A stretch of DNA of 64,000 nt from Aphelenchoides besseyi (taxonomy: Eukaryota; Nematoda; Chromadorea; Rhabditida; Aphelenchoididae). The stretch spans positions 6,510,001 to 6,574,000 of the forward strand of contig JAMPIQ010000003.1 in NCBI GenBank assembly GCA_024699855.1. The letters are read 5' to 3'. Below the pieces are notes generated by a model that was not told the DNA's origin, did no database searches, and saw nothing but the letters and a program-made list of their open reading frames with translations. How positions within the stretch are numbered: the first letter of the stretch is position 1; every line of letters starts with the position of its first letter. Shown here piece after piece: positions 17,786 through 35,600 of the stretch. Both the position numbers and the translations under genes were made by a program.

Positions 17786-17790
17786 GAACT
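17786..17790. repeat. Target site duplication of the gypsy element, left copy (gaact)
   Basis: The 5-bp sequence gaact directly precedes the left LTR and is repeated at 39824-39828 after the right LTR. Five-bp duplications are usual for Ty3/gypsy integrases. Confidence 0.9.
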
Positions 17791-17986
17791 TGTTCGGTTC
17801 TGTTGCTCAAACTGGGGTTTATGATTTATTGGTGAACAATACGGGGGTAAATAGAAGTCCAATCAGAGAGAATCACACACGAGTCGTCTCTCCAGAACCG
17901 AGTGCAAAACAGGGCAAACTACAGGGGGAGAGAGGATCGTGGCGGGATTGAGTCGCTAAGAGAACGCGGATTGCGAGGTCCGCACA
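17791..17986 (-). repeat. 3' LTR of the gypsy element (left)
   Basis: Begins tgttcggttc and ends ggtccgcaca on the plus strand, and matches 39628-39823 without any difference that I can see over 196 bp. On the transcribed (minus) strand it is preceded by a purine-rich tract at about 17987-17998 that would serve as polypurine tract. Confidence 0.93.
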
Positions 17987-18165: not shown

Positions 18166-18606
18166 TCAGACAGCGCAGTTCCTCGCGAGATCAGTGGACG
18201 GGTCGTCGGACTGGCGGCGATGAAGCTGATTTCGATGTCGAGTCACGATTTGTTGCTCTTCGGTTTGGAGTTTGACGAGAGCTCGACCCATGAATGTGAG
18301 GATTTGTCCACGAACGCGACGATTCGGGTTGATTTGGATGGTCACGTGGTCACCGATCTCGAACTTGCGGTCTTGAGTTCCATGATGACGATTGAACTTC
18401 GCGGCTTGTTGCTCGTTGCCGGAGTTCCCAGTGCTGTCGACGGTTGACTCTTGAGTCGACGGTTTGAACGCATGGAGCGGCGTTCTGAATTCACGCTTGA
18501 AAAAGGCGGTGGCTGGACTTGCGGATTGGGGTGTTGAATCGGACGGCAAGTAGTTGCACTGGTAGATGATCTCGTGAAGATTTGCGAAGCCTTTCCCCCC
18601 TTTTGC
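18166..18606 (-). pseudogene. Gypsy integrase C-terminal fragment, cut off by the Polinton
   Basis: This minus-strand open stretch continues the integrase interrupted at 35601. It reads LHEIIYQCNYLPS, then SPATAFFKREFRTPLH, typical of the gypsy integrase segment after the DDE core, then a GDHVTIQINPNRRVRGQI beta-rich domain and a basic tail. The frame continues artificially into Polinton sequence at 18613. The gene cannot make an intact integrase while the Polinton is present. Confidence 0.85.
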
Positions 18607-18612
18607 CAAAGC
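18607..18612. repeat. Polinton target site duplication, left copy (caaagc)
   Basis: caaagc immediately precedes the first AGT of the left TIR and is repeated at 35595-35600 after the right TIR. Six-bp duplications are the rule for Polinton/Maverick insertion. The duplicated bases belong to the gypsy integrase gene. Confidence 0.93.
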
Positions 18613-19678
18613 AGTAGTATGTGAGGGTCGAAGAGTCACAAAATCAATAAAAATCCCATAAATCATTCTGCGCTTAAACCTGTCACTTTTGGCTAATACC
18701 TGTCACTTTTTGCTTATATCCATCAAAAATCGTCAGGTATAGTCCTATATAAGGATTTTTTGTACAAAAATACAGTAACCGTACAAAACATCTTAATAAG
18801 GTACAAAAATACAGTAACTGTACAAAAACACAGGTATTGACCATAAATGGGAAAGTGCCGACACAAGGCGCGTGACGTCGCGCAATCACATGCACAGGTA
18901 ATGCATGAAAATACAAAAGTCTCCAAAACTGTAAAAAATTGGTATCATTCAACTCCGAATTTTGTCACGTGAACAGAAATCACACTTTCACGTTAATTAC
19001 GTGTAATAATTAATGCATGAAAAATACAAAAGTCTCCGATTCGCACAAATTTGGTATTAATCGTCTCCAAATAATGCTAGGAGCATAGAAATCACACTTT
19101 TATTACTGTTCACAGGTAATGAACAAAAAAGTGGACAACAACACTCACTCTCTTACTTGCGTGTAAACGAAAAGTAGCAACAAAAGTTGCGCTTTTGATC
19201 GAACAAATGACACGGAATTTTGATCATAATTCCACTATGACGTGGACCAATCTCCATGGCTGGAAAAGAGAAGAAGAATTGTGCGTTGTTGCCGTTGGAA
19301 GGTGTTTGTGAGCGCGAATCATGACTGCTCTCGGAAGCATCGTAGTTCAAAGGACGTTGCGCGTCTTGTCCCGACTGAACACAAACTCAGGTTTTTTTAA
19401 TCGGGACGACTTATCATCATCGACTACGAAAAAAAGAAGTCAACCAACTGTTCGGCTCAGTGACAAATGAAACCGGCACCAGTTGTTTCGAAATCCGTGA
19501 CTGTTGCGAACTAATCGAAAAAGTATTTCGAAATCGCGAAAACTCATCAATCATCCACCTATCACTTTTTATTACCTTTGCGCACCAAAAACAATTGTTC
19601 ATTTTGTAAGAAAATTTCGAACTCTTTATGCTTAGGCTATACAAAGGCTTAGGCTTACAAGACGTTGACATAAAAATA
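18613..19678 (+). repeat. Left terminal inverted repeat of the Polinton (about 1,066 bp)
   Basis: Inverted match to 34528-35594, with scattered single-base differences (roughly one percent by eye). The outer part holds short repeats: two copies of acctgtcactttt (18680-18715), a TATA-like tatataagg (18750s), two copies of a gtacaaaaatacagtaac unit, and two diverged tandem units of about 110 bp (18901-19012 and 19013-19117), each with an atgcatga start and an agaaatcacactt core. The inner half carries a small gene. Confidence 0.93.
19153..19602 (-). CDS. TIR-borne small gene, left copy, unknown function
   Basis: Mirror copy of the gene in the right TIR. It runs outward toward the element tip. 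A model consistent with both copies is a 9-codon first exon (ATG at 19602, starting MNNC), an intron of about 200 nt ending in ttcag, and a second exon of about 74 codons containing QRPLNYDASESSHD, then FFFSFPAMEIGPRHSGIMI and CYFSFTRK at the stop. Total about 82 residues, no signal peptide or known domain. The first exon is an inference; the second exon frame is clear and related to the gene at 33986-34477. The two TIR copies differ at only a few residues. Confidence 0.5.
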
Positions 19679-19936
19679 ACCCAAACCTTTCTTACGAATG
19701 CGTTACATAGCTCAACGTTTTTAATAGGCTTACTGCCCCGTCCTCGTGGACGAACAACGCACATTAGCTGTGTAACGATTGAAGGCGAACAGCCGGTTAT
19801 TGAGATTCGCCGACGACCGGAACGAAAGTTTGTTGCATTTTTCACGGCCAAATTGAACACGAATGACTTGAAAAATGATTTTTGGCGTTTCATTGAAATT
19901 ATGCAAATTTTGTTTATGTCAATTCGTTTGGAATGA
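19628..19936 (+). CDS. Small unknown frame inside the left TIR boundary
   Basis: A 102-codon frame starting within the TIR and ending just before the protease stop. Only its second half (IEGEQPVIEIRRRPERKFVAFF, from about 19,780) looks protein-like, with alternating hydrophobic residues similar in pattern to the C-terminal strands of the small genes at the other end. It may be another diverged member of that family or non-coding. No recognised domain. Confidence 0.25.
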   Translation: MLRLYKGLGLQDVDIKITQTFLTNALHSSTFLIGLLPRPRGRTTHISCVTIEGEQPVIEIRRRPERKFVAFFTAKLNTNDLKNDFWRFIEIMQILFMSIRLE

Positions 19937-19945
19937 CCGATTGGA

Positions 19946-20383
19946 TTACAAAAGTTTATTTATCAGTTTAAAAACATTAACATCTGAATTATGCAAAGTT
20001 CGCAAGTGGGAAACAATACGCTCCATAGATATTCCCAATGATCTTAGAATACAAAAAAATAAACAGTAGTGTCCGCAGACTTCGCTGGTGTCTTTTTGGA
20101 AACAAAACTTGTTGGTTTTAACGGTAGAAAACTTGTTCAAAAAATCGGCGATTGGTTTTGGAGGTTTGGCCGCAAAACTATCAAAATACTCGGCCTTTGA
20201 AGGCGACGCAACGTAAATAGCACACCAATGGCTTCCAGGTAAATAGTGCGGATCGTGGTTGAGAACGAACAAGTGGGGATATTTACGGCTCCGCGGTATC
20301 TGATCGATTGGATGGCAACCCAAAAATATTCGGCGGGTTGGAGGCAGACGACACAACAATCTTTCCATCGTTAGTTCGTTCAT
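19946..20383 (-). CDS. Polinton adenovirus-like cysteine protease (PRO)
   Basis: Ulp1/adenain-type cysteine protease thought to mature capsid proteins in Polintons. The 145-residue product has the family layout: GCHPIDQIP near residue 23, the catalytic His in GSHWCAIYV (about residue 52), an acidic residue in EYFDSF, and the catalytic Gln/Cys region QKDTSEVCGHYCLFF (about residues 96-110). It begins inside the 3' end of the upstream membrane-protein frame, overlapping it by about 100 nt in another frame, and ends near the left TIR. Confidence 0.88.
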   Translation of the reverse strand: MNELTMERLLCRLPPTRRIFLGCHPIDQIPRSRKYPHLFVLNHDPHYLPGSHWCAIYVASPSKAEYFDSFAAKPPKPIADFLNKFSTVKTNKFCFQKDTSEVCGHYCLFFCILRSLGISMERIVSHLRTLHNSDVNVFKLINKLL

Positions 20384-20555
20384 TGTCTCGAAACAGTTTG
20401 TTATGTGAAGGCAACAACGCCAGAATAGATCGGCACAAAACTCCGAGAATCAACAGAATAGCGCCAATAAAAACGTATAATAGGCACCGTAAAATTCCTT
20501 CGTGAGTAATCAGATTAGAAGGATCGCAAAACGGCAACGTGTCGTTAACGTCCAT
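20283..20555 (-). CDS. Small single-pass membrane protein of the Polinton
   Basis: A 90-residue product with one long hydrophobic helix (CLLYVFIGAILLILGVLC, about residues 25-42), a short N-terminus and a polar C-terminus. The start codon lies 3 nt from the end of the major capsid gene and the tail overlaps the protease gene. No family recognised. Small membrane proteins are common in virus-like elements, but entry, egress or assembly roles are conjecture. Confidence 0.6.
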   Translation of the reverse strand: MDVNDTLPFCDPSNLITHEGILRCLLYVFIGAILLILGVLCRSILALLPSHNKLFRDNERTNDGKIVVSSASNPPNIFGLPSNRSDTAEP

Positions 20556-20558
20556 TTT

Positions 20559-21907
20559 TCAAATAATGAGGTCCGAGCTCGCTTGCCGAAACTTATCAAT
20601 AGTTAGAATAGCGTCGTATTCGGCATAAATCAAGAGAACAACCCCGCCCGCCGGAATCGCTTTTCGAAACTTCATTTGTAGGTTTGTTGGCGAATGACGA
20701 ATCAAATCAAAAGTAGCACTGGTGCTCGACAACGAGGTCGTCAAATCGAAACAGTAAATGTTCCAACCGGATTCAAATTGCTTAAGCGAAATGGCGTTAG
20801 AGGAATCGTTGAACGCGTAACCAGTGGCCATTAGCATGTCGTGATAAGCTCTCACATATTGTTGACCATCATCGTAATTCATTTCGTATGGAACCTAAAA
20901 AAGAATTACGAAAAAAACGACCAATTCGAACAAACCGATGGATGATCGATTCCGGCCGTTGTTATGGTAATATCACGTACGTTGTACGGCTTGAAATTGA
21001 ACGGGTTCATCGACTGTGCGCCATTGAACGCCGCTGTTGAAACCATGGCCAAAACGATACGCCGTGGACATTGATCGCCGAAAATGTTCGCGTGAAAATC
21101 TGTTCGACCCTCGGTTATGATGAGATGCTTCATTTGTGTTCGACGAAGCGGGTATTTCGCCGGAGTTTGTTCCAGCTGTGCATGCATTGTCAACGATAGA
21201 CTGTCTATGAGATTGAAAAATTTGCAATACAAAGGACATTTCGTTATTTGCAGCTTGTAAGTGGAGTCGGCGGCAGCGCCCGGATTAAAAATACAAAAGT
21301 CATCAGAGTTCGGTGTCAAGAAAATGTCCATTTCGGCACCGTTTACCAACAAAAGATCCTGATTGAACACGTCGGCAGGTACTTTGCTAATCAGTTGACA
21401 CGGTTTGCTTAAAGCAAAAATGTTGCGGCTTGAAATGAGACCCGAATCCGTTTCGCTCTCTGCATCGGCGTACGGAAAATAGCCGACCTCACTGAGCGAA
21501 TATGTTTTGGCTTCGTGTCCATTCGACAATAACAGATCGAAATACGATTTGTACGAACTCAATCCGTTTCCCGAATAGACCTCACGACCACCAATCAAAA
21601 CTCGACAGTTTTTTATGAAAGTGCTTCCTATTGCTTGAATAGCCGCCGGTGTGTCTTTGGCTTCCAACGTTTTGCCATTGGATTTTGTTATGCGGAATTC
21701 GGTAACAAAGTAACTGTCGTTAAGACTAATGTAACTGTTGCCGCTGAGAACTTTGAAATGAAACGGAAACTGTTCAACGCTGTTCGTCGCAAGTATTTCA
21801 CGGTAGAAAGCGGATGAAAAACTGACATCCGTGGTGGGTATGGTAAATAGATTCAAAGCCGATGTAATGGTTTTGGGACTATCGCCGTCGATCGTTTTGA
21901 ACAACAT
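20559..21907 (-). CDS. Polinton major capsid protein, double jelly-roll
   Basis: Two exons: 20936-21907 and 20559-20894, joined across a 41-nt intron (20895-20935), giving 435 residues. Family signatures of nematode/animal Polinton MCPs are present: FHFKVLSGNSYISLNDSYF near the N-terminus, NCRVLIGGREVYSGNG, SYKSYFDLLLSNG, then PRRIVLAMVSTAAFNGAQ followed by NPFNFKPYNVRDI, and a C-terminal strand-rich part (VVLLIYAEYDAILTID). In other Polintons this protein has the double jelly-roll fold that forms trimeric hexons. It stands 2 nt from the pX-like gene and 3 nt from the small membrane-protein gene, a compact virion cassette. Confidence 0.88.
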
Positions 21908-21909
21908 GA

Positions 21910-22383
21910 TTAGACAAAAATATCACGTCGCCGTTTAGCCGCAATATTCGCCGGAACCGACCGTCCACGGAGACGTTGCGTAGATGAAATGACGGTACGC
22001 CGTTTTCGTCCTGAACCTTTGAGCGAACGAGACGCTCTATCCGCCAAGTTTGATAAGCCGACACGTGAGTGTTCTTCGATGACATTTGTGGGCGGTTTAC
22101 CTTCGGCCAAATCGTTGAGAATACGTGAACCAACGTGCAGACCTTCACGTCCAATGACTTTGCCGGCCGTTTTTGCCATCGGAATCAGCCGTCGCCAAAG
22201 TGCCTGTAACAGATCGGCAAACCCGGCGCCGCTCTGCGCTGTTCGGCCAAATCCACGCATAAACGGCTGTCCGGCAAAATAGTCGTACGTCAACGAGCCG
22301 CCGCCTATTTGCTGCATGTTATCAAACTCGCGAAAAAATCGAACATAATCGACGGTATCCGGATCGAACAATGTTTGAACCAT
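21910..22383 (-). CDS. Polinton pX/pVI-like minor virion protein
   Basis: 157 residues. The centre resembles the glycine-rich membrane-active or core peptide of Polinton PX and adenovirus pX/pVI: FAGQPFMRGFGRTAQSGAGF, then LLQALWRRLIPMAKTAGK and VGREGLHVGSRILNDLAEG-type helix. The tail is very basic (KGSGRKRR, PANIAAKRRRD), fitting DNA binding or nuclear localisation. A GSGR stretch could be a protease site, as such precursors are usually cleaved by the element's own protease; that is an inference. It lies between the two capsid genes. Confidence 0.75.
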   Translation of the reverse strand: MVQTLFDPDTVDYVRFFREFDNMQQIGGGSLTYDYFAGQPFMRGFGRTAQSGAGFADLLQALWRRLIPMAKTAGKVIGREGLHVGSRILNDLAEGKPPTNVIEEHSRVGLSNLADRASRSLKGSGRKRRTVISSTQRLRGRSVPANIAAKRRRDIFV

Positions 22384-22438
22384 TATTTATTGGAAAATAC
22401 AACAACCGTTCAATGGAACGCAAACAGAAGAATGTGAG

Positions 22439-24065
22439 TTAGAAAATTGGAGCACGACGGAACATAAGAGTCACTATCGTATGTCCGTATTGTATGGGCA
22501 ACAGTTTTCCGGCCAACGTGCGCAACTCAATATCTATTGTGTTGACTTCTTTTACGGCAAGCGGATAGAAAGTTGGTTGTTCGAAATAGCACTCCGCCGA
22601 TTCGCCTTGATTTCCGGAAACATTGACTACCTGTAAAACGGAAACCATTTTGTCGCCCAAAATAGAAGGCTCGATTAGGCCGGGAGCATAAATGACAAAA
22701 TGTGAAATGCCTCCTGAAAAAATCTTGCATTCAATAGTAGTCGATGTTATCACCTGTTAGATCGCAATCATAATGAGCAAAACTGCCGTGAACCAACAAT
22801 CTATCCTTCTCGAACCCCAGCGTGTATGCCAACTGTTCAGACAACTGAACATATTCAACTTTTGAGTCTAAATACAGGCGAAAACGTCTTCGCATATTGT
22901 CGAAAACAAAGCCACTTCCGGGTGGTATCTTTTCCGTAAACGGGATGTCTTCAACGTTGTTAAGCTCGTTCAATATGGCGATTTGCTCATCGTACTCGCT
23001 CATATTCTCGGGAGCCGGTGGCTTTTCAGGCGTAGGTGTTGTGTCCATTTCTTCATCTTCCCTGTTCGTTTCTTCAACTGACAACATTTCTTGGTCGTTC
23101 GCTCCAATGTCGTTTTCTTTCGCTAACGCCGCTTCTTCTTCTCTTTTCTTTTCTTCATCTGACAACGTATCTTCTTCCGCAACAGCTGATTCTTCCATCG
23201 TTAACGCCTCTTCTTCATCTTTTCTGTTCGTTTCTTCAGCTAACAAAATTTCTTGGTGGCTCGCTGCAATGTCGTTTTCTTTCGCCAACGCCGCTTCTTC
23301 TTCAGCTGCTTGAGCGTCGAGAACGCCTGCACTTATTTGCTGTTCGTTCGTGTTGTACTTGGCATACAGTGCATTGAGAGCATTCAAACTATTCGTAGCG
23401 TCTTCACGGGCAATTTGGATAAGATCGTCTTGGGACGCCACGGCCGCCACCAGTGTTTTCAAATGTTCTTCATCGTCGGCAATCTCGTTGCTCAGTTGCT
23501 CTAATTGAAGACGTTTTTCCTCGAGCACTGCCAGGTCGCCGTCGTTCTTTTCGAGTGACTTTATATCGGTCTCCAACGCATCGCGATTGCGTGTCTTTTC
23601 AGCCAATTTTACATTCGCTTCGTCGACGGCTCTTTGTTTTTCACGTATAGCCTCCACTTCATGATCGTACGCTGACTTATTGATACTCCATTCTTGCTGA
23701 GCTTTTTCGATTTGCGTATTTTGTTCATCAGTCAATCGGACAGAACGTCGAATACGCGGCGTTTGTACGGCGGTCATAATGCTTGTCAAGTGTTGAGCCA
23801 TATGTTCGACTGTATGAAATGTTGCCGCATCGACCTTAAGAGTTACAATATTGCCCGTAGTATCCCTCATTTTTATCCATTGAGGTGTTTCGGAGTCTAT
23901 GGTCGTCCAACTTTTGGTGTAGAATATGCTACGCAGACCCACTTGCCAACTGCCATCGTAAAAGTGCAGAGTTTTTGGGAGTTGAACGCGAAAACTGTTC
24001 GAGCGGTTCGCGTAACCAAAAGTGTTCGACGGTAAAATAACTGTGAATCGCTGGTCGAACGACAT
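22439..24065 (-). CDS. Polinton minor capsid (penton) protein with large coiled-coil insert
   Basis: Two exons, 22754-24065 and 22439-22713, separated by a 40-nt intron, give 528 residues. The start at 24065 is chosen because it opens directly on the family N-terminus (FTVILPSNTFGYANRSN; YDGSWQVGLRSIFYTKSW) and avoids overlap with the integrase. The penton jelly-roll resumes after about residue 385 (MRRRFRLYLDSKVEYVQLSE; LAYTLGFE) and ends with APGLIEPSILGD and TIDIELRTLAGKLLP. Between them lies an insert of roughly 280 residues: a long heptad-like coiled coil (about residues 105-240), then acidic repeats with two copies of EEEAALAKENDI, then a Pro-rich linker. I know of no such insert in typical Polinton penton proteins. 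Confidence 0.85.
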
Positions 24066-24099
24066 GCCGTTGTGAAGGAAATAACAAAACTGGAAAACT

Positions 24100-25210
24100 T
24101 TACACCAAATCGCTTTCATTTATCCAACAGTTTTCCGACGGCGAATGATTCTTCCATTGAACGTACAGTTGACGCCGACCATTCAACGTACGCGTCCGCA
24201 GAACGCGTTCTATCCGATAGGTTGGTTCGGCCGCCGTTTTCGACAGCTCCGGGGCGTAGAAACGGCCGGAAAGAGGTGTGCCGTTAAGATCGCATAAACA
24301 AAATGTTGGCGGAGTTGTGGGCATCTTTTTCGTAATACGAAATATTTCATCGGTCCACGCAGCGTGATAACCTTTCGCAAACGCCGCTTTCCATTTCGAA
24401 ATACGAACATGATCACCGACTTTCAAGCGCACGCGTTTAGAAGATGCGTTGTAGGCGTATAGGCGGTTCCAAACTTGTCGCCAATTGCGCATATTCACGT
24501 CAATTGGGCGTAGACCAAGTGTTCGGTTGTGCGAATGATTAATGGCTCTAGTCAACGGGTCGAGAGCATCTATCCACTTATAAGTGCTCTTTTCACTCAT
24601 GTATTTGTACAGACGTCTAAAACAGAGCTCAAGTTTTTCATCTGTTGCCTTACTGTTTCAGGGTTCGTATCATTCGTTCGGCTAGCGCCGCTTTTGTTTC
24701 GGTGTTGTGGGCGAGTTTGTGGGTTATTTCCAACGAATTCAAAAACCTTTTGACTTTTTGGTTGTCGAACTCTTTACCCAAATCCGTGAATATTGACCAG
24801 AACAAATAGTCGACCTCGCGAAACATGCTCTTCAGTGCGTCGATAATCTCTTCGGGTTTTTTGGTTCGCAACGGCTGGGTGAAAACTCGTCGACTCAAAC
24901 TCTCCACCAAAACCAAAACGTAACGAAACCCGTTGTTCCATTTGTGAAGCTCCGGCATGAACATCAAGTCCATGGAAGCGTCCGTGAAAAACCCCGCCGG
25001 TCGCACTTTCAAACGTTTGAATCTTAGTCGACGTTGTTTGTGAAGAGAAGCGGTTCGATCGTCTTCGAGCACTTTTCTTATCGCATCGCTTCCAATGTTC
25101 TTCGACTTTAGCGCACGCCTCAAGTTACCAACGGACGAATAGGCGGCCGACGAGTCCAAGGAACGATAGGCGTCGAGAATAAGTTTACGTTGCCTATTCG
25201 TAACCGCCAT
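24100..25210 (-). CDS. Polinton retroviral-like integrase with C-terminal chromodomain
   Basis: Two exons, 24654-25210 and 24100-24616, with a 37-nt intron (24617-24653), give 357 residues. An N-terminal helical region is followed by the DDE core: first Asp in ASMDLMFMP, second in IFTDLGKEFDN, Glu in ALAERMIRTLKQ just before the intron. The core ends YKWIDALDPLTRAINHS and NRTLGLRPIDVN. An SH3-like segment (VGDHVRISKWK) and a chromodomain (RIERVLRTRTLNGRRQLYVQ; NCWINESDLV) close the protein. It inserts the element and makes 6-bp duplications; the chromodomain may bind methylated histones. Confidence 0.93.
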
Positions 25211-25334
25211 GAAGAGGAAATATTCGACCTGACACCGCCGATTATTGGCTATGAGAATATCGACAAACTCTACTTTCTTTTGTGCTTGTTTATTATCTTA
25301 TTGCACATACAAAAAAAGATGAAATGCACACGAT

Positions 25335-26117
25335 TTACAAAACAGACAAACGAATCATTTCGCGGAAATCAGCGCAAACAGGATAATGAACACTAACAAC
25401 AGCTGTGGAATTTTGGCGACCATTCAACGATTTACCGCCGTCGTTGTCAGCGTACAATTCTTTCAGCGGATCACGATACCAATTGGAAGCCAACTGAGCA
25501 TCGTCGTCCGTAACAGCGTAATGATACGAGACATAGCCCCACAGAGTGTGCTTGGTTTGAATAACATTTTTGTGCGAACTTGCCGACAACAACGACGTAT
25601 TCATTGATTCATTTTTGTTCAAAAAGGAAACAGACTCATACGTAAAAATACAATCATCGAAAAATCCCGCCCAAAGACGAAGCTCGCTTATGGAACAAAT
25701 CTGCCCGCAAAGAACAATGTGATCCAACAGGTTGAGAGATTCCAAAGCCCAGAGACAATTGTAGGCAAACTCGGGAACATCCAACGCGTTAATGCGCAAC
25801 ATACGAAGACGCGTTAGTTCAGCGAGAACACGAAACTCGGACAAAAACATCTTCAACGCGTGTTTGTGATGGCCAAAAAATACAAAAATGGTCTTCGTAT
25901 CCCAAGCTCCATCGTCCATGTGCTCACACTCGTCCACTCCCACTTCTTCAAATGGTTGTATGCGAACCTCCGACTGCTCAACGAACTGATGAAAACGATA
26001 GGCAGATCGAAGGTTGCCACCGAACATGTCAAAGCCGTAGACACGAAGCGAGTAGACAACCAAATCATTCGACGGCATGTTCGCATGGTCAATGGGACGA
26101 TTCACACCGTTCGCCAT
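25335..26117 (-). CDS. Polinton cargo protein of unknown function
   Basis: 260 residues from ATG at 26117. I do not recognise it. The middle has a leucine-rich, alpha/beta-looking stretch (FRVLAELTRLRMLRINAL, WALESLNLLDHIVLCGQI, SISELRLWAGFF) that recalls the substrate-side repeats of nematode F-box-associated proteins. No F-box, signal peptide or membrane helix is visible. It lies between the integrase and the gene at 26230, on the same strand as the core. It is not one of the standard Polinton core proteins, so it may be a lineage-specific or host-acquired accessory gene. Confidence 0.6.
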   Translation of the reverse strand: MANGVNRPIDHANMPSNDLVVYSLRVYGFDMFGGNLRSAYRFHQFVEQSEVRIQPFEEVGVDECEHMDDGAWDTKTIFVFFGHHKHALKMFLSEFRVLAELTRLRMLRINALDVPEFAYNCLWALESLNLLDHIVLCGQICSISELRLWAGFFDDCIFTYESVSFLNKNESMNTSLLSASSHKNVIQTKHTLWGYVSYHYAVTDDDAQLASNWYRDPLKELYADNDGGKSLNGRQNSTAVVSVHYPVCADFREMIRLSVL

Positions 26118-26229
26118 GTTGCGTATGTCGATGAGCGTTTGAAGTGACAGTACGTTTTGATGACAAGTCGCGGAAAACTAAAAAAGTCATCATCATCACA
26201 ACGAAAACTTACCATTTTTTTGTAAAAGT

Positions 26230-27066
26230 TCAAGTCCAAACAATTGGTCGGAAGCTTTTGCGATTCGAATCTTGCAACACCCTTCTCTCGGAATCGTTGA
26301 TCAACAATTTGGGTGGTCTTCGAGTGCTGTTTTTTGCTACGGTTTTAAAGCGCATCAAGCCGCTTCCTTTCATTGCCGCAGATTTTGATTTACTGATCGT
26401 CTTTTTTGACGGAGACTTCACCGGCAAGCCGGGTGTCAAATCACGAAACTCATCGATATTCTCCAAATGTTTCAGCCACGTGCGAGTGCCAGTTGGCGTT
26501 TTGGCGCCGCTTGTGTTGTTGTTCAAAAGATGTGCCAACGATTTTCGCGCATCACTGCCGACAATAGGGTTGAGTGTTCGCGAGTTCAAAACACGATTAC
26601 GCTCATCCACACCGTAAGCCGACGGGTTCTCGCTTATCTTCCGCCAAAGTTGGTCGAATTTTGATTCGCCCAAAGGTACGGTAGTGGCCGGTTCCGTAGA
26701 GGTTTTTGGCGACTTCTTGCGTTTTTTCGGTGGCGGAGCTTCGACGGCTGTTTCACGAGGAACATTGTCGTGATCTCGCAACTCTGGCTCGGCGGATTTT
26801 ATTGTTGTCGCCTGTTGGCCGGAGTCGTCGCTCACAGTGACCGCAATCGGTTTGTTTTCCACGGCTTTCCATTGTTTCAAATAGCTAACAAGCGCCTGAT
26901 TCAAAAGTAAACTTCGTTGACTGGTTGAGAGTTTCTTGTCGTTGTTGATTTTATCGAGCATTGTCATAGCGTTCAATAAAAAGTTATCCGTCGTTTTTCC
27001 GTCCAACATTTCGACTTTCGAGTCGCGAATACGTTCGGGTGGAACGAGAACAAAGGTACGAGCCAT
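26230..27066 (-). CDS. Polinton-associated protein, Lys/Pro-rich, possibly PY-like
   Basis: 278 residues from ATG at 27066 (MARTFVLVPPERI). The N-terminal part (to about residue 80) is helical (NFLLNAMTMLDKINNDK; QALVSYLKQWK) and resembles a conserved Polinton hypothetical found near capsid genes. The middle is Pro/Lys-rich with a likely nuclear localisation signal (PPPKKRKKSP). The C-terminus is basic with a GSGLMRFKTV motif that might be a protease site. Its stop is 21 nt short of the next gene's frame end. The assignment as PY-like is tentative. Confidence 0.6.
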   Translation of the reverse strand: MARTFVLVPPERIRDSKVEMLDGKTTDNFLLNAMTMLDKINNDKKLSTSQRSLLLNQALVSYLKQWKAVENKPIAVTVSDDSGQQATTIKSAEPELRDHDNVPRETAVEAPPPKKRKKSPKTSTEPATTVPLGESKFDQLWRKISENPSAYGVDERNRVLNSRTLNPIVGSDARKSLAHLLNNNTSGAKTPTGTRTWLKHLENIDEFRDLTPGLPVKSPSKKTISKSKSAAMKGSGLMRFKTVAKNSTRRPPKLLINDSERRVLQDSNRKSFRPIVWT

Positions 27067-27087
27067 GGGAGCGCAAAACACAAGCAA

Positions 27088-27450
27088 CTAATCGGTACGC
27101 AGTGACGTCAACAAATGAATCAAAATCGGAGTTATCAAAGGCAAAACGCCCGCAAGTCCGGCACCCGTTTGCACCAACTTTCGAGCCGATCGTTCACATC
27201 GAACACGTGCCAGTTTTCGTACGAATGGTGCGTGAGGCTTCAATCGATTGAGTTCGTTTCGTTTCAACGGAAAATGCGCGTGCAAAACGTTGTAGGCAAT
27301 CTCAACCAGCGCCAAAAGCTCGTCGGCAGTTGCGTCGGCTATCAGTTCACGACGCTTCACATCCGTACGTGTTCGTTTCACGCGTTGAAGAAACGACGAA
27401 AAAGGCAACAGTCGTTTATTAGCCGAAAACGCAACCACCCGTTGAGACAT
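27088..27450 (-). CDS. Small basic Polinton protein with C-terminal hydrophobic segment
   Basis: 120 residues from ATG at 27450. The pattern ATADELLALVEIAYNVLH, then KPHAPFVRKLARVRCERS and a hydrophobic end (GAGLAGVLPLITPILIHLL) matches a small conserved protein seen in many Polintons and related adintovirus-like genomes, where its job is unknown. The last helix could be membrane-active. It lies directly before the 26230-27066 gene in the same transcriptional direction. Confidence 0.6.
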   Translation of the reverse strand: MSQRVVAFSANKRLLPFSSFLQRVKRTRTDVKRRELIADATADELLALVEIAYNVLHAHFPLKRNELNRLKPHAPFVRKLARVRCERSARKLVQTGAGLAGVLPLITPILIHLLTSLRTD

Positions 27451-27604
27451 TGCAAATGACAATTGAGTCAAAGTACACACAATCGGTAATATATTTTTTT
27501 CAACTCTCTGACTTTTCTGTTTCTATTCGGTCATTTGCCCACGCATTTTTTAACAAAACGGTTTATCGAGGGCCCATAATACAACAACAACAATATTCGA
27601 TGGG

Positions 27605-28006
27605 TCAGGGCTTTGGAGTATGATTCTCTTTGCCGTTGACACAGTGCCGACAACTGGCTACCATCTTATCCCGGGTCATGGAACCCATGGAGAAGAACAA
27701 AACGTCTTCGGTGTTATCGATCGGACGGCGAAGATTATACCAACGGTAGTGTTCATCGGGTTTCAACGACTCCAACACATCGATTGAGCCTTCGAAACCC
27801 AAAACGGTCATCTCTTTCGTTTGACCGCTCTCTTCCGTTTCAATGACAACACGAATGACTTCGCCGCTTGCGCACTTGTAACGGTGACCAACAGCCATAA
27901 CGTGTGCGTCAAAAGTTCTAAAACAGTTCCAAAAAAAGAACAATATCACTTACTCCATCTTCACGGTTTTTGCTTCTTCCTTGTTGATTTTGTTGAACGG
28001 TGCCAT
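27605..28006 (-). CDS. Small beta-rich Polinton protein, possible OB-fold
   Basis: Two exons, 27954-28006 and 27605-27917, with a 36-nt intron, give 121 residues starting MAPFNKINKEEA. The body alternates short strands (VMAVGHRYKCASGEVIRVVI; EMTVLGFEGSIDVLESL; HYRWYNLRRPIDN) and ends with CRHCVNGKEN. The strand pattern would fit a single-stranded DNA-binding OB-fold that could assist the polymerase. This is a guess from pattern only; no family is recognised. Confidence 0.55.
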
Positions 28007-28269
28007 GGGGCTTTTTGCGAATGTCTAAAAATATGCGAGTTAGTGGCAAACGAAAAGACAACGACCGAGTGAAAGAAAACGGCAAACAAGTTTGAATGAA
28101 AGTTCAAGAGTTGTCGGTCAATTTGGGTGATGGACCACCCACTTAGTGTAATGGTCGTTAATCACGGCAAACCCGTAAGATTGCGTTTCGGACTTGACAC
28201 AAAGACAAACAGCCGTCTCAATTGTTGCGGCTCTTTTATGTACCGAAAACCACTTTTCCTCACCTCTCA

Positions 28270-28935
28270 CTACTGTCGGCCACCGTTGGCTGGTAGAAAA
28301 GCGCGAACCGGCTGTTCGTCGGGAAAAATATTGGAGCGTAGGCGAAGAAGCGGATTGCTTTGCGGATGCATGTCGATAAGCAAATAGCCAAAGGAACGCG
28401 ATTTCACGGCACTCTTGAACGCGTCCATAAAATACTTTAGATTGCCGGTAAACAGTTGAGTTCCGATTGTTCGTAGAGAGAGTTGAGCGTTTGGCGATGA
28501 CATTAAACAAATGTAATGTGAGTTTATGCGCGGTACTCGCACACTTTTATCGAACAGATTTTGCACAACCATCACAAGTCCAATGTTTTCGTGATGCGAA
28601 ATCTTTATGAACAAATCCTCCAAAAACTTGGAGTCAATGCTTCCCATAAGATCGTCGAGAACGAGTACAAGTGGTTTCGCAAGCCGTTCAAGTGTTTCAA
28701 CGGACGGTACGCCTTCGTGGACGTTGAATTCGTCGCCCATTGCATCGATCTGCTCCACTTCGGGCGTATAATGACCGTAGCAATACAAATAAGTCAACGG
28801 CGTCGGAGTGACCATTTGTTTCGAGTTTCTCAAGAAGCGCATAAGCCATTGCGTTTTACCCGACGACGAACTTCCAGATATAATCGCATTGAAGGGCAAA
28901 CGAAAACACAAATCCTCTTCATTCACACACAACAT
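28270..28935 (-). CDS. Polinton packaging ATPase (FtsK/HerA type)
   Basis: The product has Walker A GSSSSGKT about 25 residues after the start, Walker B LVLVLDDLM near residue 90, and a sensor-like MVVQNLF segment, all typical of A32/FtsK-HerA genome-packaging ATPases in Polintons and related viruses. Start at 28935 (MLCVNEEDL) gives 221 residues; the frame is open to about 29031 and a ttgtctcttag acceptor precedes the start, so a short upstream exon is possible. The 3' end is close to a converging antisense frame that is not credible as a gene. Confidence 0.88.
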   Translation of the reverse strand: MLCVNEEDLCFRLPFNAIISGSSSSGKTQWLMRFLRNSKQMVTPTPLTYLYCYGHYTPEVEQIDAMGDEFNVHEGVPSVETLERLAKPLVLVLDDLMGSIDSKFLEDLFIKISHHENIGLVMVVQNLFDKSVRVPRINSHYICLMSSPNAQLSLRTIGTQLFTGNLKYFMDAFKSAVKSRSFGYLLIDMHPQSNPLLRLRSNIFPDEQPVRAFLPANGGRQ

Positions 28936-29269
28936 ATCCCTAAGAGACAACAAACAAACGAATGATTGTTTTTTCCGCAAACAGTCGAATGTTTGCGAAG
29001 CGGTATGTGTTATCACTCGATCGTCTTTCACTTGTTTCGGCTTTTGGCGTTTTCGATAGTTTCAACGTTGAAAACTCATCGGCGATGCAATTTCGTGTAG
29101 CCGTTTTCCGGTGAGGCTACTGTTTACGGCGACAACACGCTCATTGGTTGCTGTCCGATTCTACTCATATTCGACTCTCTGTTGCGGTCGGACAAACTGC
29201 AAAAAGGAGGCGGAGTGTTTGGCGATATGTTTTGATTTGATTCCGTAATTTTTCCCCCATTCAACACCA

Positions 29270-29692
29270 ATGGCTGCTCCGCGAATGGACTGTTCGAACG
29301 CGCGTTTGTTTCTCACCGGATCGACTTACGGAAGTTTGGTTCAGTTTTCCAACAACAACCGCAACAACTTTCGCAACTTTCTCACAAGTTCGATGGAAAG
29401 TGCGCGAATTCTCTACGCGGATCGACAATTGAAACGAGTGTCTTTGACCGCTTGCACCGCTTCCATCGCTACGACACTGATGTCCGTTGGTCGTGCGCGA
29501 GGACAATTGAAGAACGAGGTGGCGACGTCCAAACGCCAAACGTTTTTCGCCGACCGCACAAACGAATTGGACCAAAACGAACAGATGGCTGACAAACTGT
29601 TGAGTGTTCTTCCACCCGATTTCGACTTTTCCAACGGTTCGCTTCTTTTACTCATCAAGTTTTTTCCTCGTTGGAAACACATCAAAGCATAA
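29270..29692 (+). CDS. Unknown Polinton protein on the opposite strand
   Basis: 140 residues, ATG at 29270. It is the only clear plus-strand gene in the interior of the element. The sequence is hydrophilic, Asn/Arg/Ser-rich at first (FSNNNRNNFRNFLTSSMESA), then helical (DRQLKRVSLTACTASIATTL; RGQLKNEVATSKRQTFF) and ends with KFFPRWKHIKA. No known domain. It converges on polB; the two stops are only about 55 nt apart and aataaa/tttatt-type signals for both strands lie between them. It starts about 330 nt from the ATPase start, so the two may share a divergent promoter. Confidence 0.6.
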   Translation: MAAPRMDCSNARLFLTGSTYGSLVQFSNNNRNNFRNFLTSSMESARILYADRQLKRVSLTACTASIATTLMSVGRARGQLKNEVATSKRQTFFADRTNELDQNEQMADKLLSVLPPDFDFSNGSLLLLIKFFPRWKHIKA

Positions 29693-29749
29693 CAAATGAA
29701 AGTGTATTATGGCTTTTCAATATTGTTCAACAATAAACAACAACAATAT

Positions 29750-32700
29750 TCAGTTTCTATCAAATTGGTATCCAAATGGATACACTTTAAGATCGTCGTC
29801 GATGACTCCTTTCGAATAGAAGCGTCGGTAGGAACGGGGCACTTGTTTTGTGACCACCGTTCCGCGCTTATCGGGCATAATCTTGCGATACGTGCACTGA
29901 ACGCCTGTGTTGTCATCGTAGTTCAGTGCGATTCTTTTAAACTCTTCGTACGTGAGCATTGATGCCACTTCCTTGTCGAATGTTATTCCACGAATCTTGA
30001 TAGGAGTCGTTACGATGGAACTATCGATTAACGACCGGCACATCATCGCGTACTGTTTATTGCCAGCGATCACGACCTGAAACAAAAAAAATGAACGTAT
30101 TGTTGGCAATGTCCGATACCTCCAAAATCTCTTTATCGGGCATTTCCTTTTCCATCATTCCAAGACGATCGCCAACCTCGAATGGCAACGTCACATTACG
30201 TGGTTTCGTGAGAATGACAGAATCTGAAAAACAACAAATGAACAAAACATCCAAACTCACCGGTGTCGGTGTAGATCAACGAGAAGCCGGGTGTTTCGTC
30301 GATAGCCTTCATGATTCGGTAGAGCTGAATACGTGCACACGATGTTGTAAGTGCCGCGTAAACCAAATTCGAGGCGGGTCCCGCTTTCACGTACTCGGCT
30401 CTTTTCGTGAAGACTATGAGCACACATTTCTCGGTGAGAAACTCGCATCGATCCACTTCCACTGTTGGGTCTTGGAAGATGTTGATGACTTTGGCAACAT
30501 CGGTAGTCACATCCGTTTGCGACATACGGTTTCGAATACCGAAACGGCCCTGAAAAAAACGAGTTGTCAGTGTGTGAACCGATCACTTACCCAATGCGAG
30601 TTGAGACAAAGCTTCGAAACGGTGCGTCGTCCGGGATTGTTCTTCATATCGGCGGTGTTGATTTCGATTTGCAAATGCTCGAAAATCTCGCGCTCAAAGC
30701 TGGATCGCTGCGCGGGATTATCGTACTTGCACTTTTTGCTCTCCATCTTGGCTTTCAAAAATTGGCGAACGTAGGGCTTGAAAAGCTCCGTTGACCATTC
30801 GTTGTAATGCCATGCGCGAAAGAAACGAATGACCTGATAGGAGTTGGCGAGCGCCTCGGCCAATTCGAAAGTCGTGCCTTCGAATACGAAGGATCGTTGA
30901 TGTACGGTGTGTCGACAGTTACGCGCTTTTTCCTTGTTCGGATTCTTCGTCTGCTCGTATGCACATGAACGGCAGAGTGCAAAAACGAGAAAGTCGCCAA
31001 TTCGCATCGGAAGAACCGGAAGCCTAAGCCTTTGCGGTGGTAGAACAACACACTTGATGAGTCCCTTGTACGGAATGTCGTCGGGTTTTGTCCATGGTCG
31101 CGACCGCAAATCCTCTTCTTTCACAACAACCATGGGATGATGAAGCGGAAACTCGGCAGTGAACTGCTGATAGGGATACCTACGGAAAATGATCATGTGC
31201 TTCAACTTTTAACTTACATTGATTGAATATCGTAAAACACAATCTCCGTATTTTCATCGGCTTTGGCGTACATTTGAACCGGTCCACAGCGTCCACCTGC
31301 AACAAATAAGAAAACACCGAAAAACAATAGACTAACCGAAAAAGGCGTTACGCGGTGCTATCGGACCTTCGTCGAAACACTCGGAAAAGAAGGATCGCAT
31401 TTGAGTGTCTTTTTTCAATTGACGTTCAATCTCGCATGTCCAAACAACACGAACCTCGTAGACTTGGCTCAACGTTTCCAAACGTTGCTTTTCTCTTTTT
31501 TGATTGGCCATAACTGTTCGACCGTTGGGCAGCACATCCGTTTCCTCGTAGCATGCAGAGTGTCCGTGAAATCTAAAACAAAAGTTTTATCATAAGACGC
31601 TCAAACTTACAAACATCCGTTGATTTCCAAAACCAACGGTTTTTCGTTGGTGCCACGATCAACAACAGCGTCCAAACTGTACTGCTTGTACTTTATTTCA
31701 CCACCTGCGGAGTCACGATGTCGAACTGTGAACTGGGGATTGCAATGCGCGTACCATTTGATGTACTTCAAAGCGATGGACGATTGTCGAGTTTGCTGTT
31801 CATAGCCTGTTTCCGGAACAACTGCTATGGTCTTTTCTTTCAGGATGTTGGTGCGAAAATGAAGCATACACGCCGAAGCAATGGTGGTGGCGTTTTGAAT
31901 CATGTCGATCGATGTTTCGTGTAGAAAGATTTTACGAAACTCAACCACTGCATGCATGAGAATGTTGACGTCGTTGCGGCCATATTCCTCCAACTGTACC
32001 TTCAAATCAAACGGTGTGTTGAACTCTTCTTCATAGTATTTTAGGAATTTGGCGTATTTTTCTGTTGTCATGCAATCTGTTGAGTAGTATTCCATTGGCG
32101 GCAAATGAGGCAACGGGTTGTTGTAGTTGCATCGTTTATTCCACAAATATGGAAACCATTGTTTCTCTTCGACGCCCAAGTTGAAGGTCTGTGGTAGCGC
32201 GGAAAGCGCGAGTGGAAACAAAAGATACGAGTCCTTGAAGATCAGCATTCCACCGTTTCGATGTTTCACGACAACTTGAAAGACCTTGTTACCGTTTGCC
32301 ACAAACTTCTTCATGTCGATGTTTTGACGAACCAGTTCGCCGATAATCAGAATAAGATCGAAACGAGCGGCGAAATGCGCGATCGCGTAGAGACGGACGT
32401 TCTTCTCGTTGGACAACTTGAGCAACCATGAAACAAATTTCCTCAAAGGCTCATCACATCCTGTGGCTTCGTTCCAGCTGTTCATTCGTTTGTAGGTAGC
32501 GCAACACGTGCGAAATCCATCCGTTTTCCATTCGCCATTGTCCAAACATTTGGTGCATGAAGAATAAGCGGCCACGTAGTTGACTTCGTGTTTCAATGCA
32601 CAATTAGACAGCAGATCTTCTTGACGTGTCTCAAAGTCGTAGCAAACGATGCGCGATGGAACGGTGCTTTTCATCGGTTTAACAGTCGTGATGTAACATT

Positions 32701-33933
32701 CGTCCTCGGCGTGTACGGTTTTGCATGTGAAACACAACTGCTCACCGCAATTATGTTCTCCACGTTTCGCATTGTAGCATTTGCCGCATTTGATGCAAAT
32801 GTGGTAGAGTCCACAAATATCGCGTTCGACATGCGATTGGAAACAATCAAGATTCGGAAACGTCTTGTTGCATTTTTCGCATGGATATTTGATCCACTTT
32901 CCATCTTCATCGTATTCTTTTTGGCACGGCCGATCGATTCCCATTCGAAAGCAATAATTGCATCGACGTTTACATTTGACTTGATGGGTCAAGGCATTCG
33001 TAAACGGCGAACAACAGTCGATGCAAAAAACTTTTTGCACGCCGAAAAATTTCCGAAGACTCACGATGACATCGCAATGAGCATCATGATAGTACAGGAG
33101 AAGTTCGTGCGTCGGGTTGTTCGTTTTCCCCTGATAGAGCGGCTTGTAGTCGGTTCGCGATTGAAAGACGCTGATACGAATTCTGCGCAACACAATTTCG
33201 CCTCTGTCGTTTTGTAGACGCCCGTACTTTTTGTTGTAGAAGGCTTCGAGCAGCGGCAAAAAATGCATCAGATCGTAGGAAGCGCTACCGTTCGGATACT
33301 TGAAGTCGCATCGAAGCTCGCCGAGAAGCTTATCGACACGATTGGGGTTTTGGCGAAGATAAGATCGTTGTTTTTTTGAAGTCAAATCAGTGAGCACAAA
33401 AACGCGTGCAACTTCCGCCGCTCGAAACAAACATGCTCCGTCGGGAGAGAAAATATGGAAAACGCCAAACTCATCTTCTTTATGTGCCATCGGATCGTTG
33501 CCAAGTCCAGCCCTTCTGGTTCCATAAACCGTAGCGGCAAATTCGATGCGAGTTCGGTAGACGTTAAGTTCGCGATGTGATTGTTCAATCTGAAAAAAAA
33601 GGGTTTTTCCATTTTTTTGGACCCTCAAACCTGCTCCCACGTATTCATAAGCGCGTCGACGCTGTTTTGCTCCAGCGATCGAAACGGTACGTAGAGTGGA
33701 TTCTCCAGGCCTTCAGCGTTCATAGTGAATCCGATTTTTGTCGGTTGAATTCCTCGTTCTTCGGCGTTCTCTATCGCGCGGTCAACAACGCTTCGAACTT
33801 GTGCACGCATAACGTCAAGAGGATTCTCACCATCGTCCAAATCAATCAACGTCGATTCTTCACGATAGCGAAGAAGCACGGGAAATCGTTCCGAGTATTC
33901 GGTTTCACGCGAGTGAACAGCGAAATTCGGCAT
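29750..33933 (-). CDS. Polinton protein-primed family B DNA polymerase (pPolB)
   Basis: Eight exons (33631-33933, 31611-33589, 31337-31572, 31218-31296, 30591-31179, 30271-30549, 30120-30233, 29750-30076) separated by 37-43 nt introns, all in frame, give about 1,301 residues. After an N-terminal domain comes a Cys/His-rich part (CNYCFRMG, CEKCNKTF, CIKCGKCY, CFTCKTVH). Exonuclease motifs: CYDFET, AHFAARFD and YGRNDVNIL. Then EINGC-FHG and GGRCGP. Polymerase motifs: A DIQSMYP, B KLCLNSHWG, C YTDTDS; A, B and C each fall across or beside an intron. The C-terminus reads YPFGYQFDRN. This is the replication enzyme of the element. Start ATG 33933; the frame is open slightly upstream. Confidence 0.93.
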
Positions 33934-33985
33934 TTTTTCAAAAAAGTACGGTAACAAAAAAACGTTTGATCGTCGACACGTACAA

Positions 33986-34477
33986 ATGAGCAACTGTGGT
34001 GTTGCCACAAGTTGGTGTGAGATTTCGGCAAAATTATTTATCTTTCAATTGGCCGGTCAATCGAGTTTTAGCGCAACCGACGGACCACCCGCTTTGAAAT
34101 TTCGGGGCCAATTGATTGTGGCGCTAAAAACCGTTGCCTTGTCATTAATCTTATTGTTCGGTGATTTCTTCTTTTGAAGGTGCAAACTTGTGGCGTATTT
34201 GATTCTTTTGGCAAATCAGGCGCAAGTTTCGTGTGATATGGTAAGTTCTTGGGGCACTAAACATTTTCACTTTTTTTCGGCAAACGAGTTTCCTCAACGA
34301 CCTCTGACATACGATGCGTCGAATAGTTCGATGGCGGAAAGCACACATTCGTTGGTTTCTTCACCGTCAACATGCACTGTTCAAGACGAAAAAAACGGTG
34401 TTGTTATTTCCATTCCTACTCAATTCGTCGAACGTAATAAAAGTCTCGGCGTTTACATTTCATTCAATCGTAAATAA
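33986..34477 (+). CDS. Diverged paralogue of the TIR-borne small gene
   Basis: Lies just inside the right TIR and starts 52 nt from the polB start on the other strand. The downstream part (34190-34477) carries QRPLTYDASNSS, a Ser/Thr-rich middle, GVVISIPTQF and YISFNRK at the stop, matching in order the second exon of the TIR gene (QRPLNYDASESS, GIMIKIPCHLF, FSFTRK). An ATG at 33986 (MSNC) resembles MNNC at the start of the TIR copy. The splice joining the parts is unclear: no good acceptor is seen just before the matching block. A polyadenylation signal is near 34491. Confidence 0.45.
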
Positions 34478-34527
34478 TTGTTGATTGCAAGAATAAACAT
34501 TTGAACAAAAAAAAGTCTTAGAATTGC

Positions 34528-35594
34528 TATTTTTATGTCAACGTCTTGTAAGCCTAAGCTTTTGTATAGCCTAAGCATAAAGAGTTCGAAATTTTTCTTA
34601 CAAAATGAACAATTGTTTTTGGTGCGCAAAGGTAATAAAAAGTGATAGGTGGATGATTGATGAGTTTTCGCGATTTCGAAATACTTTTTCGATTAGTTCG
34701 CAACAGTCACGGATTTCGAAACAACTGGTGCCGGTTTCATTTGTCACTGAGCCGAACAGTTGGTTGACTTCTTTTTTTCGTAGTCGATGATGATAAGTCG
34801 TCCCGATTAAAAAAACCTGAGTTTGTGTTCAGTCGGGACAAGACGCGCAACGTCCTTTGAACTACGATGCTTCCGAGAGCAGTCATGATTTGCGCTCACA
34901 AACACCTTCCAACGGCAACAACGCACAATTCTTCTTCTCTTTTCCAGCCATGGAGATTGGTCCACGTCATAGTGGAATTATGATCAAAATTCCGTGTCAT
35001 TTGTTCGATCAAAAGCGCAACTTTTGTTACTACTTTTCGTTTACACGCAAGTAAGAGAGTGAGTGTTGTTGTCCACTTTTTTGGTCATTACCTGTGAACA
35101 GTAATAAAAGTGTGATTTCTATGCTCCTAGCATTATTTGGAGACGATTAATACCCAATTTGTGCGAATCGGAGACTTTTGTATTTTTCATGCATTAATTA
35201 TTACACGTAATTAACGTAAAAGTGTGATTTCTGTTCACGTGACAAAATTTGGAGTTGAATGATACCAATTTTTTACAGATTCGTAGACTTTTGTATTTTC
35301 ATGCATTACCTGTGCATGTGATTGCGCGACGTCACGCGCCTTGTGTTGGCACTTTCCCATTTATGGTCAATACCTGTGTTTTTGTACAGTTACTGTATTT
35401 TTGTACCTTATTAAGATGTTTTGTACGGTTACTGTATTTTTGTACAAAAAATCCTTATATAGGGCTATACCTGACGATTTTTGATGGATATAAGCAAAAA
35501 GTGACAGGTATTAGCCAAAAGTGACAGGTTTAAGCGCAGAATGATTTATGGGATTTTTATTGATTTTGTGACTCTTCGACCCTCACATACTACT
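34528..35594 (-). repeat. Right terminal inverted repeat of the Polinton (about 1,067 bp)
   Basis: Inverted copy of 18613-19678, ending CATACTACT before the duplicated caaagc. Roughly a dozen base differences from the left arm by eye. Confidence 0.93.
34605..35054 (+). CDS. TIR-borne small gene, right copy, unknown function
   Basis: Proposed exons 34605-34631 (MNNCFWCAK) and 34833-35054, joined in frame over a 201-nt intron with gtaata at the start and gtgttcag at the end, giving about 82 residues. The intron is five times longer than the others in the element, so the first exon is an inference; an alternative is that the intervening frame (open from 34605 to 34790) is itself translated. Because it lies in the TIR, each transposition copies it twice. 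Confidence 0.5.
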
Positions 35595-35600
35595 CAAAGC
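35595..35600. repeat. Polinton target site duplication, right copy (caaagc)
   Basis: Direct repeat of 18607-18612 next to the outer end of the right TIR. Confidence 0.93.

What the first reader, a model, noticed from the sequence alone, without database searches (positions are those of the whole stretch)
18607..35600. Complete Polinton nested inside a gypsy integrase gene, with exact junctions
Both boundaries can be read to the base: 6-bp duplication caaagc, AGT...ACT ends, and the gypsy integrase frame continuing on both sides (DDE core at 35.6-36.0 kb, C-terminus at 18.2-18.6 kb). The host retrotransposon itself has identical LTRs and a 5-bp duplication, so the order of events is certain (gypsy first, Polinton second) and both appear recent.
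Basis: seen in the sequence. Interest (0 to 1): 0.88.

Follow-up and report, generated by a model that had tools for sequence, protein, structure and literature searches.

The report
Capsid-swapped Polinton inside a gypsy integrase
A 17-kb virus-like Polinton lies, with exact 6-base duplications, inside the integrase gene of a gypsy retrotransposon in a genome that is likely from an Aphelenchoides nematode, and its capsid genes are near-identical to those of a different Polinton family there, so it likely took up a foreign capsid cassette before it jumped.

Summary
A 16,982-bp Polinton (18613-35594, 6-bp duplication CAAAGC) interrupts the integrase of a 5,045-bp gypsy element (identical 196-bp LTRs, duplication GAACT). 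Four near-identical uninterrupted gypsy copies in the same genome show the empty site; six of seven Polinton end-pairs tested have an exact 6-bp duplication. No other Polinton end tested (0 of 26) lies in this gypsy, so the target looks like chance. The more interesting point was missed: the element is a mosaic. Its capsid block (about 20.45-24.05 kb) differs by 2.3-3.3% from a second Polinton family, close to that family's own diversity, while the adjacent integrase differs by 28% and the protease by 19%. Fourfold sites agree (3/163 inside, 36/57 outside), and deeper lineages show that the capsid gene is not simply slow. The gypsy copy has 1 private substitution in 4,031 sites, so the 12 substitutions between the Polinton's terminal repeats, and probably the capsid exchange, predate the insertion. 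Module exchange is known in virophages and adintoviruses; a recent, breakpoint-mapped, independently ordered case in an animal Polinton is what this adds. Direction, donor and present activity are not shown.

The parts
17791..17986 (-). gypsy LTR, 196 bp, identical to the one at 39628-39823; 5-bp duplication GAACT at 17786-17790
18166..18612 (-). gypsy integrase, C-terminal side, cut off by the Polinton
   Evidence: frame continues in an assembled empty copy; no significant Pfam match
18607..18612 (.). target duplication CAAAGC, left copy
   Evidence: single copy in the empty sites
18613..19678 (+). Polinton terminal inverted repeat, left (AGTAGTATGTG...)
19946..20383 (-). putative cysteine protease of the window's own lineage (82% as protein to family A)
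   Evidence: weak, E=0.01; Pfam C48 below cut-off
20427..20469 (.). left breakpoint of the mosaic (last dense mismatch to element A at 20427, next at 20469)
20559..20882 (-). capsid protein, C-terminal piece
20906..21907 (-). major capsid protein, first piece (333 aa), 96-97% as protein to family A-F
21910..22383 (-). small basic protein (name as adenovirus pVI/pX-like recalled, not tested)
22731..24065 (-). coiled-coil protein of 444 aa, possible minor capsid protein (not shown)
   Evidence: poor model
24011..24086 (.). right breakpoint of the mosaic; likely start codon of the coiled-coil protein at 24065
24100..24657 (-). integrase, chromodomain end (PF00385)
24650..25297 (-). rve integrase core (PF00665); GT...AG stretch between core and chromodomain
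28270..28935 (-). A32-type packaging ATPase (PF04665, E=4.1e-5)
30196..33712 (-). family B DNA polymerase in pieces split by GT...AG stretches (PF03175)
34528..35594 (-). Polinton terminal inverted repeat, right
35595..35600 (.). target duplication CAAAGC, right copy
35595..35996 (-). gypsy integrase core (rve, E=3.7e-14)
36061..39514 (-). gypsy RNase H, reverse transcriptase, DUF7083
39628..39823 (-). gypsy LTR, second copy; GAACT at 39824-39828

Best explanation
A 16,982-bp Polinton with a 6-bp target duplication sits inside the integrase gene of a young gypsy retrotransposon, and because its capsid-gene block is 97.7% identical to element A of another Polinton family while its integrase gene is only 72% identical to that of A, it is likely a recombinant that took up a foreign capsid cassette and was then inserted, as the duplication would predict, by its rve integrase. 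Shown: both insertions and their order, the empty sites, the mosaic and its two breakpoints. Inferred: homologous recombination between two co-resident Polinton genomes (perhaps outside the chromosome); that it came before the insertion, since no assembled copy is close enough to be the donor of a later conversion; that the integrase made the insertion. Not shown: direction of the transfer, the donor, any virion, any activity today.
For: Duplications, ends and empty sites. Inside the block the window differs from A by 2.3% over 3,571 sites and from B, C, F by 3.2-3.3%; A, B, C, F differ among themselves by 0.0-2.6%; outside it differs from A by 27.7% (1,019 integrase sites) and 18.9% (438 protease sites), where A and B differ by 1.6% and 0.7%. 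Fourfold differences window-A: 3/163, 6/88, 15/140 inside; 16/42, 36/57, 27/50 outside. Protein identity to A: PolB piece 72%, ATPase 82%, integrase 75%, capsid 97%, protease 82%. Control: the deeper element G gives 48, 48, 44, 45, 38% for capsid, protease, ATPase, PolB, integrase. Capsid tree puts the window inside A-F (with D, 0.948), integrase tree outside A, B, C, F (0.959). Order: 1 private gypsy substitution in 4,031 sites against 51 of 3,499 block sites where the window alone differs from A, B and F and 12 terminal-repeat substitutions.
Against: One copy of the recombinant only; no reads to test the joins. The window alone differs from A, B and F at more block sites (51) than A (19), B (28) or F (36) do, so it is at the edge of the family there, not deep inside it. 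The capsid gene shows more fourfold change (15/140) than the coiled-coil gene (3/163), so the block may come from more than one event. The unrooted nucleotide tree of the block does not fix the direction. D and E cover only part of the block and have no integrase match.
Confidence: 0.8

Rival explanations
1. The capsid block was overwritten by gene conversion in place, after the Polinton had landed in the gypsy element.
For: Several family A-F copies lie in the same genome, so donors of the type exist; a tract of about 3.6 kb is possible in principle (inference).
Against: A conversion younger than the insertion should leave a donor nearly identical to the tract; the nearest assembled copy differs by 2.3%, and the gypsy clock allows at most about 0.14% per site since the gypsy inserted. 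A lost, polymorphic or unassembled donor would remove this objection.
Confidence: 0.12
2. There was no exchange: the capsid block only evolves more slowly than the rest of the element.
For: Capsid proteins can be constrained (general knowledge).
Against: Fourfold sites and the stretch 22384-22730 are as similar (99.4% to A) as the coding parts; element G shows capsid, protease and ATPase at like distances; identity changes abruptly at two points.
Confidence: 0.02
3. The mosaic is an assembly artefact that joins two Polintons.
For: No reads are available, and the gypsy copy carries six single-base length differences against four relatives but one substitution, so this assembly seems to hold indel errors.
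Against: Two independent false joins would be needed, and the block is not a duplicate of any assembled copy (2.3% from the nearest; 51 sites of its own against A, B and F). The outer ends and duplications are clean.
Confidence: 0.05
4. The Polinton is aimed at gypsy elements, for example through the chromodomain of its integrase.
For: The integrase has a chromodomain (PF00385).
Against: Of 28 Polinton ends whose flanks could be cut (29 tried, no end motif found for L015), only the window's own two lie in this gypsy; the other 26 show no match to it by blastn or tblastx. This tests this gypsy family only.
Confidence: 0.04

Closest known systems
Maverick/Polinton elements (adintoviruses) of animals
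   Same: rve integrase with chromodomain, PolB, A32-type ATPase, double jelly-roll capsid protein, long inverted repeats; AGTAGT ends and 6-bp duplications as given for intact vertebrate Mavericks (PMC8097293, passages) and the chromodomain as given for adintoviruses (PMC11071296, passages)
   Different: Genes split by GT...AG stretches, whereas the intact vertebrate elements are described as intronless; capsid block from another family
EMALE02 virophage and mixed-pairing adintoviruses
   Same: Capsid module paired with replication or integration genes of another lineage (PMC8547959, passages; PMC11071296, passages)
   Different: Those exchanges join distantly related groups; here the block differs by 2.3% from the nearest relative, both breakpoints are placed within about 45 and 80 bases, and a nested insertion orders the events
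Retrotransposons nested in Polinton-like viruses and virophages
   Same: Nesting of one element in another (PMC12220804 and PMC8547959, passages)
   Different: Here the other way round: the Polinton lies in the retrotransposon
Nematode Mavericks carrying a fusogen and cargo genes
   Same: Nematode host (likely), Polinton core genes (PMC10680173, one passage of a meeting report)
   Different: I noticed no fusogen or cargo gene among the translated frames, but ran no dedicated search for one

Membership tests
Polinton/Maverick | rve integrase (with chromodomain) | tested here: met
   PF00665 E=8.7e-8 (32.8 against cut-off 32.6) and PF00385 E=7.1e-6
Polinton/Maverick | family B DNA polymerase of the protein-primed type | tested here: met
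   PF03175 E=2e-15 and 4.6e-8 in two pieces; pieces not joined, priming not testable
Polinton/Maverick | long terminal inverted repeats with AGT-type ends and 6-bp duplication | tested here: met
   six of seven end-pairs exact, the seventh 5 of 6
Polinton/Maverick | A32/FtsK-type packaging ATPase | tested here: met
   PF04665 E=4.1e-5, 23.6 against cut-off 22.8
Polinton/Maverick | double jelly-roll major capsid protein | tested here: met
   some relatives named F54H12.2-like among 31 hits; model pLDDT 71 matches double jelly-roll capsid or scaffold proteins with E down to 1.5e-7, but TM-scores listed for PDB are only 0.28-0.44
Polinton/Maverick | adenovirus-type cysteine protease | tested here: inconclusive
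   Pfam C48 E=0.013 below cut-off; ASFV S273R E=0.01
Polinton/Maverick | minor capsid (penton) protein | tested here: inconclusive
   no informative homologue, model pLDDT 58
Polinton/Maverick | forms virions or moves today | not testable with these tools
   sequence only
Gypsy-type LTR retrotransposon | LTRs TG...CA with 4-6 bp duplication | tested here: met
   196-bp identical LTRs, GAACT
Gypsy-type LTR retrotransposon | order protease, RT, RNase H, integrase | tested here: met
   RVT_1, RT_RNaseH_2, rve in that order; aspartyl protease below cut-off
Gypsy-type LTR retrotransposon | primer-binding site and polypurine tract | not tested
   none

The most novel reading that the evidence does not exclude
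In this nematode the Polinton capsid genes behave as an exchangeable cassette: at least three Polinton lineages (the window element, family A-F, element E) draw on one capsid-gene pool while their ends, integrases, polymerases or proteases stay lineage-specific, and such a recombinant was still able to insert. Polintons here would recombine as co-resident viral genomes.
Probability: 0.45. Interest if true: 0.7.

Novelty: new variant of a known kind. Interest (0 to 1): 0.52.

Why it matters
Whether animal Polintons live as transposons or as viruses is argued mostly from gene content. A recent capsid swap between two families in one genome, in an element that was then inserted with a clean target duplication, would show that capsid genes travel as a unit and are kept intact by exchange, which fits a viral life. 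The nesting gives a second, independent clock: mismatches between Polinton terminal repeats can be carried in at insertion, so dating Polintons by terminal-repeat divergence can overstate their age.

Tried and rejected
Aimed insertion into this gypsy: 0 of 26 other Polinton flanks match it. Frameshift in the integrase: not needed, a GT...AG stretch lies between core and chromodomain in the window and at the same place in A, B, C and F. Slow capsid gene: contradicted by fourfold sites and element G. Age from terminal repeats: rejected; at 4 of the 11 substitutions compared (first 990 bases) both states occur in other copies, so these are shared variants. Structure of the coiled-coil protein: model too poor (pLDDT 58), so no fold search was run on it. 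PHROGs: only integrase-type matches and one E=0.032 match. Rfam and ARAGORN scans of the window: no hits. PDB sequence search of the ATPase: no hit at E<=0.1. A 2023 paper on nematode Polinton polymerases, seen only in a reference list, is not held, and the nematode fusogen work is known here only from one passage of a meeting report, so I do not claim that this capsid swap is unpublished; my ten paper searches listed no title that describes it.
Full report
Setting. The window is G000:C3:6510001-6574000 of a 47.4-Mb assembly in 31 contigs. The only relative found for the coiled-coil protein of the Polinton (96% identity over 99% of the query; only the 7,996 best candidates were scored) is named as Aphelenchoides besseyi. 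The three contigs seen in these calls measure 18.1, 17.8 and 10.0 Mb.

The nest. The Polinton runs from 18613 to 35594 (16,982 bp), with terminal inverted repeats of 1,066/1,067 bp (12 substitutions, 1 gap) and CAAAGC on both sides. It lies in the integrase gene of a gypsy element whose 196-bp LTRs are identical and flanked by GAACT. RT and DUF7083 lie in 36866-39514, RNase H in 36061-37104, the rve core in 35583-35996. A 63-base probe from the left flank finds five other gypsy copies. In four of them the 60+60 bases around the site are present without the Polinton, with 0+0, 0+0, 0+0 and 0+1 mismatches; the fifth is an older copy for which my ungapped count gave 33+2. The four young copies have LTRs 5.03-5.05 kb apart. 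Gypsy first, Polinton second is therefore shown.

Other copies. A 200-base end probe gave 31 matches, a lower bound. Seven end-pairs could be tested: six have an exact 6-bp duplication (CAAAGC, GTTTCC, AGCAAG, GCTGCC, CATCTT, GCTGCA), one matches at five of six. Of 29 ends tried, 28 gave a flank; only the window's own two lie in this gypsy.

Gene content, all on the minus strand. PolB in pieces between 30196 and 33712 and the ATPase at 28270-28935; integrase core and chromodomain within 24100-25297; coiled-coil protein 22731-24065; a small basic protein 21910-22383; the capsid protein 20906-21907 with its end at 20559-20882; a weakly supported protease 19946-20383. Some of the 31 relatives of the capsid protein are named F54H12.2-like; its model (pLDDT 71) matches double jelly-roll proteins of several viruses with low E-values but modest TM-scores. 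Frame changes in the integrase and PolB coincide with GT...AG stretches, which I read as introns, not as damage; there is no transcript to prove it. The gypsy copy shows six single-base length differences against four relatives but one substitution, which looks more like assembly noise than decay.

The mosaic. Letters: A (C3:2002438-2021113, 18,676 bp, duplication GCTGCA), B (C1:8.19 Mb), C (C1:3.91 Mb), D (C1:13.89 Mb), E (C1:0.42 Mb), F (C3:8.93 Mb), deeper G (C2:1.98 Mb); places. Against A, dense mismatches stop at 20427 and resume between 24011 and 24086. Inside, the window differs from A by 2.3% over 3,571 sites, from B by 3.3%, C 3.3%, F 3.2%; A, B, C and F differ among themselves by 0.0-2.6%, and D (partial) by 3.5-4.2% from these four. 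Outside, the window differs from A by 27.7% over 1,019 integrase sites and 18.9% over 438 protease sites, where A and B differ by 1.6% and 0.7%. Fourfold differences window-A are 3/163, 6/88 and 15/140 inside and 16/42, 36/57 and 27/50 outside. As proteins, window against A: PolB first piece 72%, ATPase 82%, integrase 75%, capsid 97%, protease 82%. Element G, at 48% capsid, 48% protease, 44% ATPase, 45% PolB and 38% integrase, shows that the capsid protein is not unusually slow. The capsid tree puts the window inside the A-F group, next to D (support 0.948); the integrase tree puts it outside A, B, C and F (0.959). D and E have no integrase match and cover only part of the block. The direction stays open: the nucleotide tree of the block is unrooted, and the window alone differs from A, B and F at 51 of 3,499 sites, more than A (19), B (28) or F (36). 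Element E agrees with the window at 94-99% per 100 bases in the capsid gene but falls to 68-84% below about 20645, which looks like another exchange with a different breakpoint. Probes across the two breakpoints find no second copy of the recombinant: the next-best matches are 85% (4 of 5 matches) and 71-87% (6 of 7).

Order and clock. Over 4,031 gypsy sites covered by at least two of the four young relatives the window copy has one private substitution. The Polinton is younger than this gypsy copy, yet its terminal repeats differ by 12 substitutions. Had these arisen after insertion, 12 of 13 events would have fallen on 2,132 of 6,163 sites (p=2.6e-5; with the upper bound of the gypsy rate p=6e-5). 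So most were carried in. By the same reasoning the capsid exchange, whose block differs by at least 2.3% from every copy compared, is most simply older than the insertion; a lost or unassembled donor would weaken this.

Mechanism and status. (1) Recombination between two Polinton genomes put the capsid block of the A-type family beside this lineage's ends, integrase and polymerase (mosaic shown; homologous recombination and direction inferred). (2) The recombinant was inserted into the gypsy integrase with a 6-bp duplication, as rve integrases of Polintons do (duplication shown; enzyme inferred). (3) The gypsy copy lost its integrase frame by that event (shown).

Prior work seen, passages only. 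AGTAGT ends and 6-bp duplications in intact vertebrate Mavericks (PMC8097293); capsid-module exchange in EMALE02 (PMC8547959) and mixed capsid/PolB pairings in adintoviruses (PMC11071296); retrotransposons nested in Polinton-like viruses (PMC12220804); network-like exchange among polintons and virophages (PMC3671162); exchange of modules between Polinton-like viruses and virophages (PMC11071308); Polintons as endogenous viruses (PMC10120064); Maverick among the widespread DNA transposons of plant-parasitic nematodes (PMC11118728). The kind is known; the recency, the mapped breakpoints and the independent ordering are what this case adds.

Noticed in passing
L086 (G000:C2:11391366-11396377): 5,012-bp element with the window's type of ends and a 6-bp duplication AGCAAG; inverted arms of about 1,850 bp, 100% identical in the segments found, around a 1.3-kb centre; no Polinton core gene hit is listed there. 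Looks like a non-autonomous, nearly palindromic Polinton derivative.
   Followed up: partly
L042 (G000:C1:420092-423757): Element E shares the capsid gene at 94-99% per 100 bases with the window but drops to 68-84% below about window 20645: a second, differently bounded exchange.
   Followed up: partly
G000:C2:959134, C2:11767295, C2:13183940, C3:5808281: PolB-like loci (69-72% to the window's PolB piece) with no capsid or integrase hit listed nearby; possibly capsid-less derivatives.
   Followed up: no
L028 (G000:C2:3809306-3812455): A Polinton end whose flank is itself Polinton terminal-repeat sequence: a Polinton nested in a Polinton, or a rearrangement.
   Followed up: no
window 3073-4131 and 57076-57949: Inverted repeats of 400, 276 and 140 nt (74-88% complementary) about 53 kb apart, outside the nested elements.
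   Followed up: no
window 17791-18612 and 35595-39823: The gypsy copy has six single-base length differences against four relatives but one substitution, a hint of residual indel errors in this assembly.
   Followed up: partly
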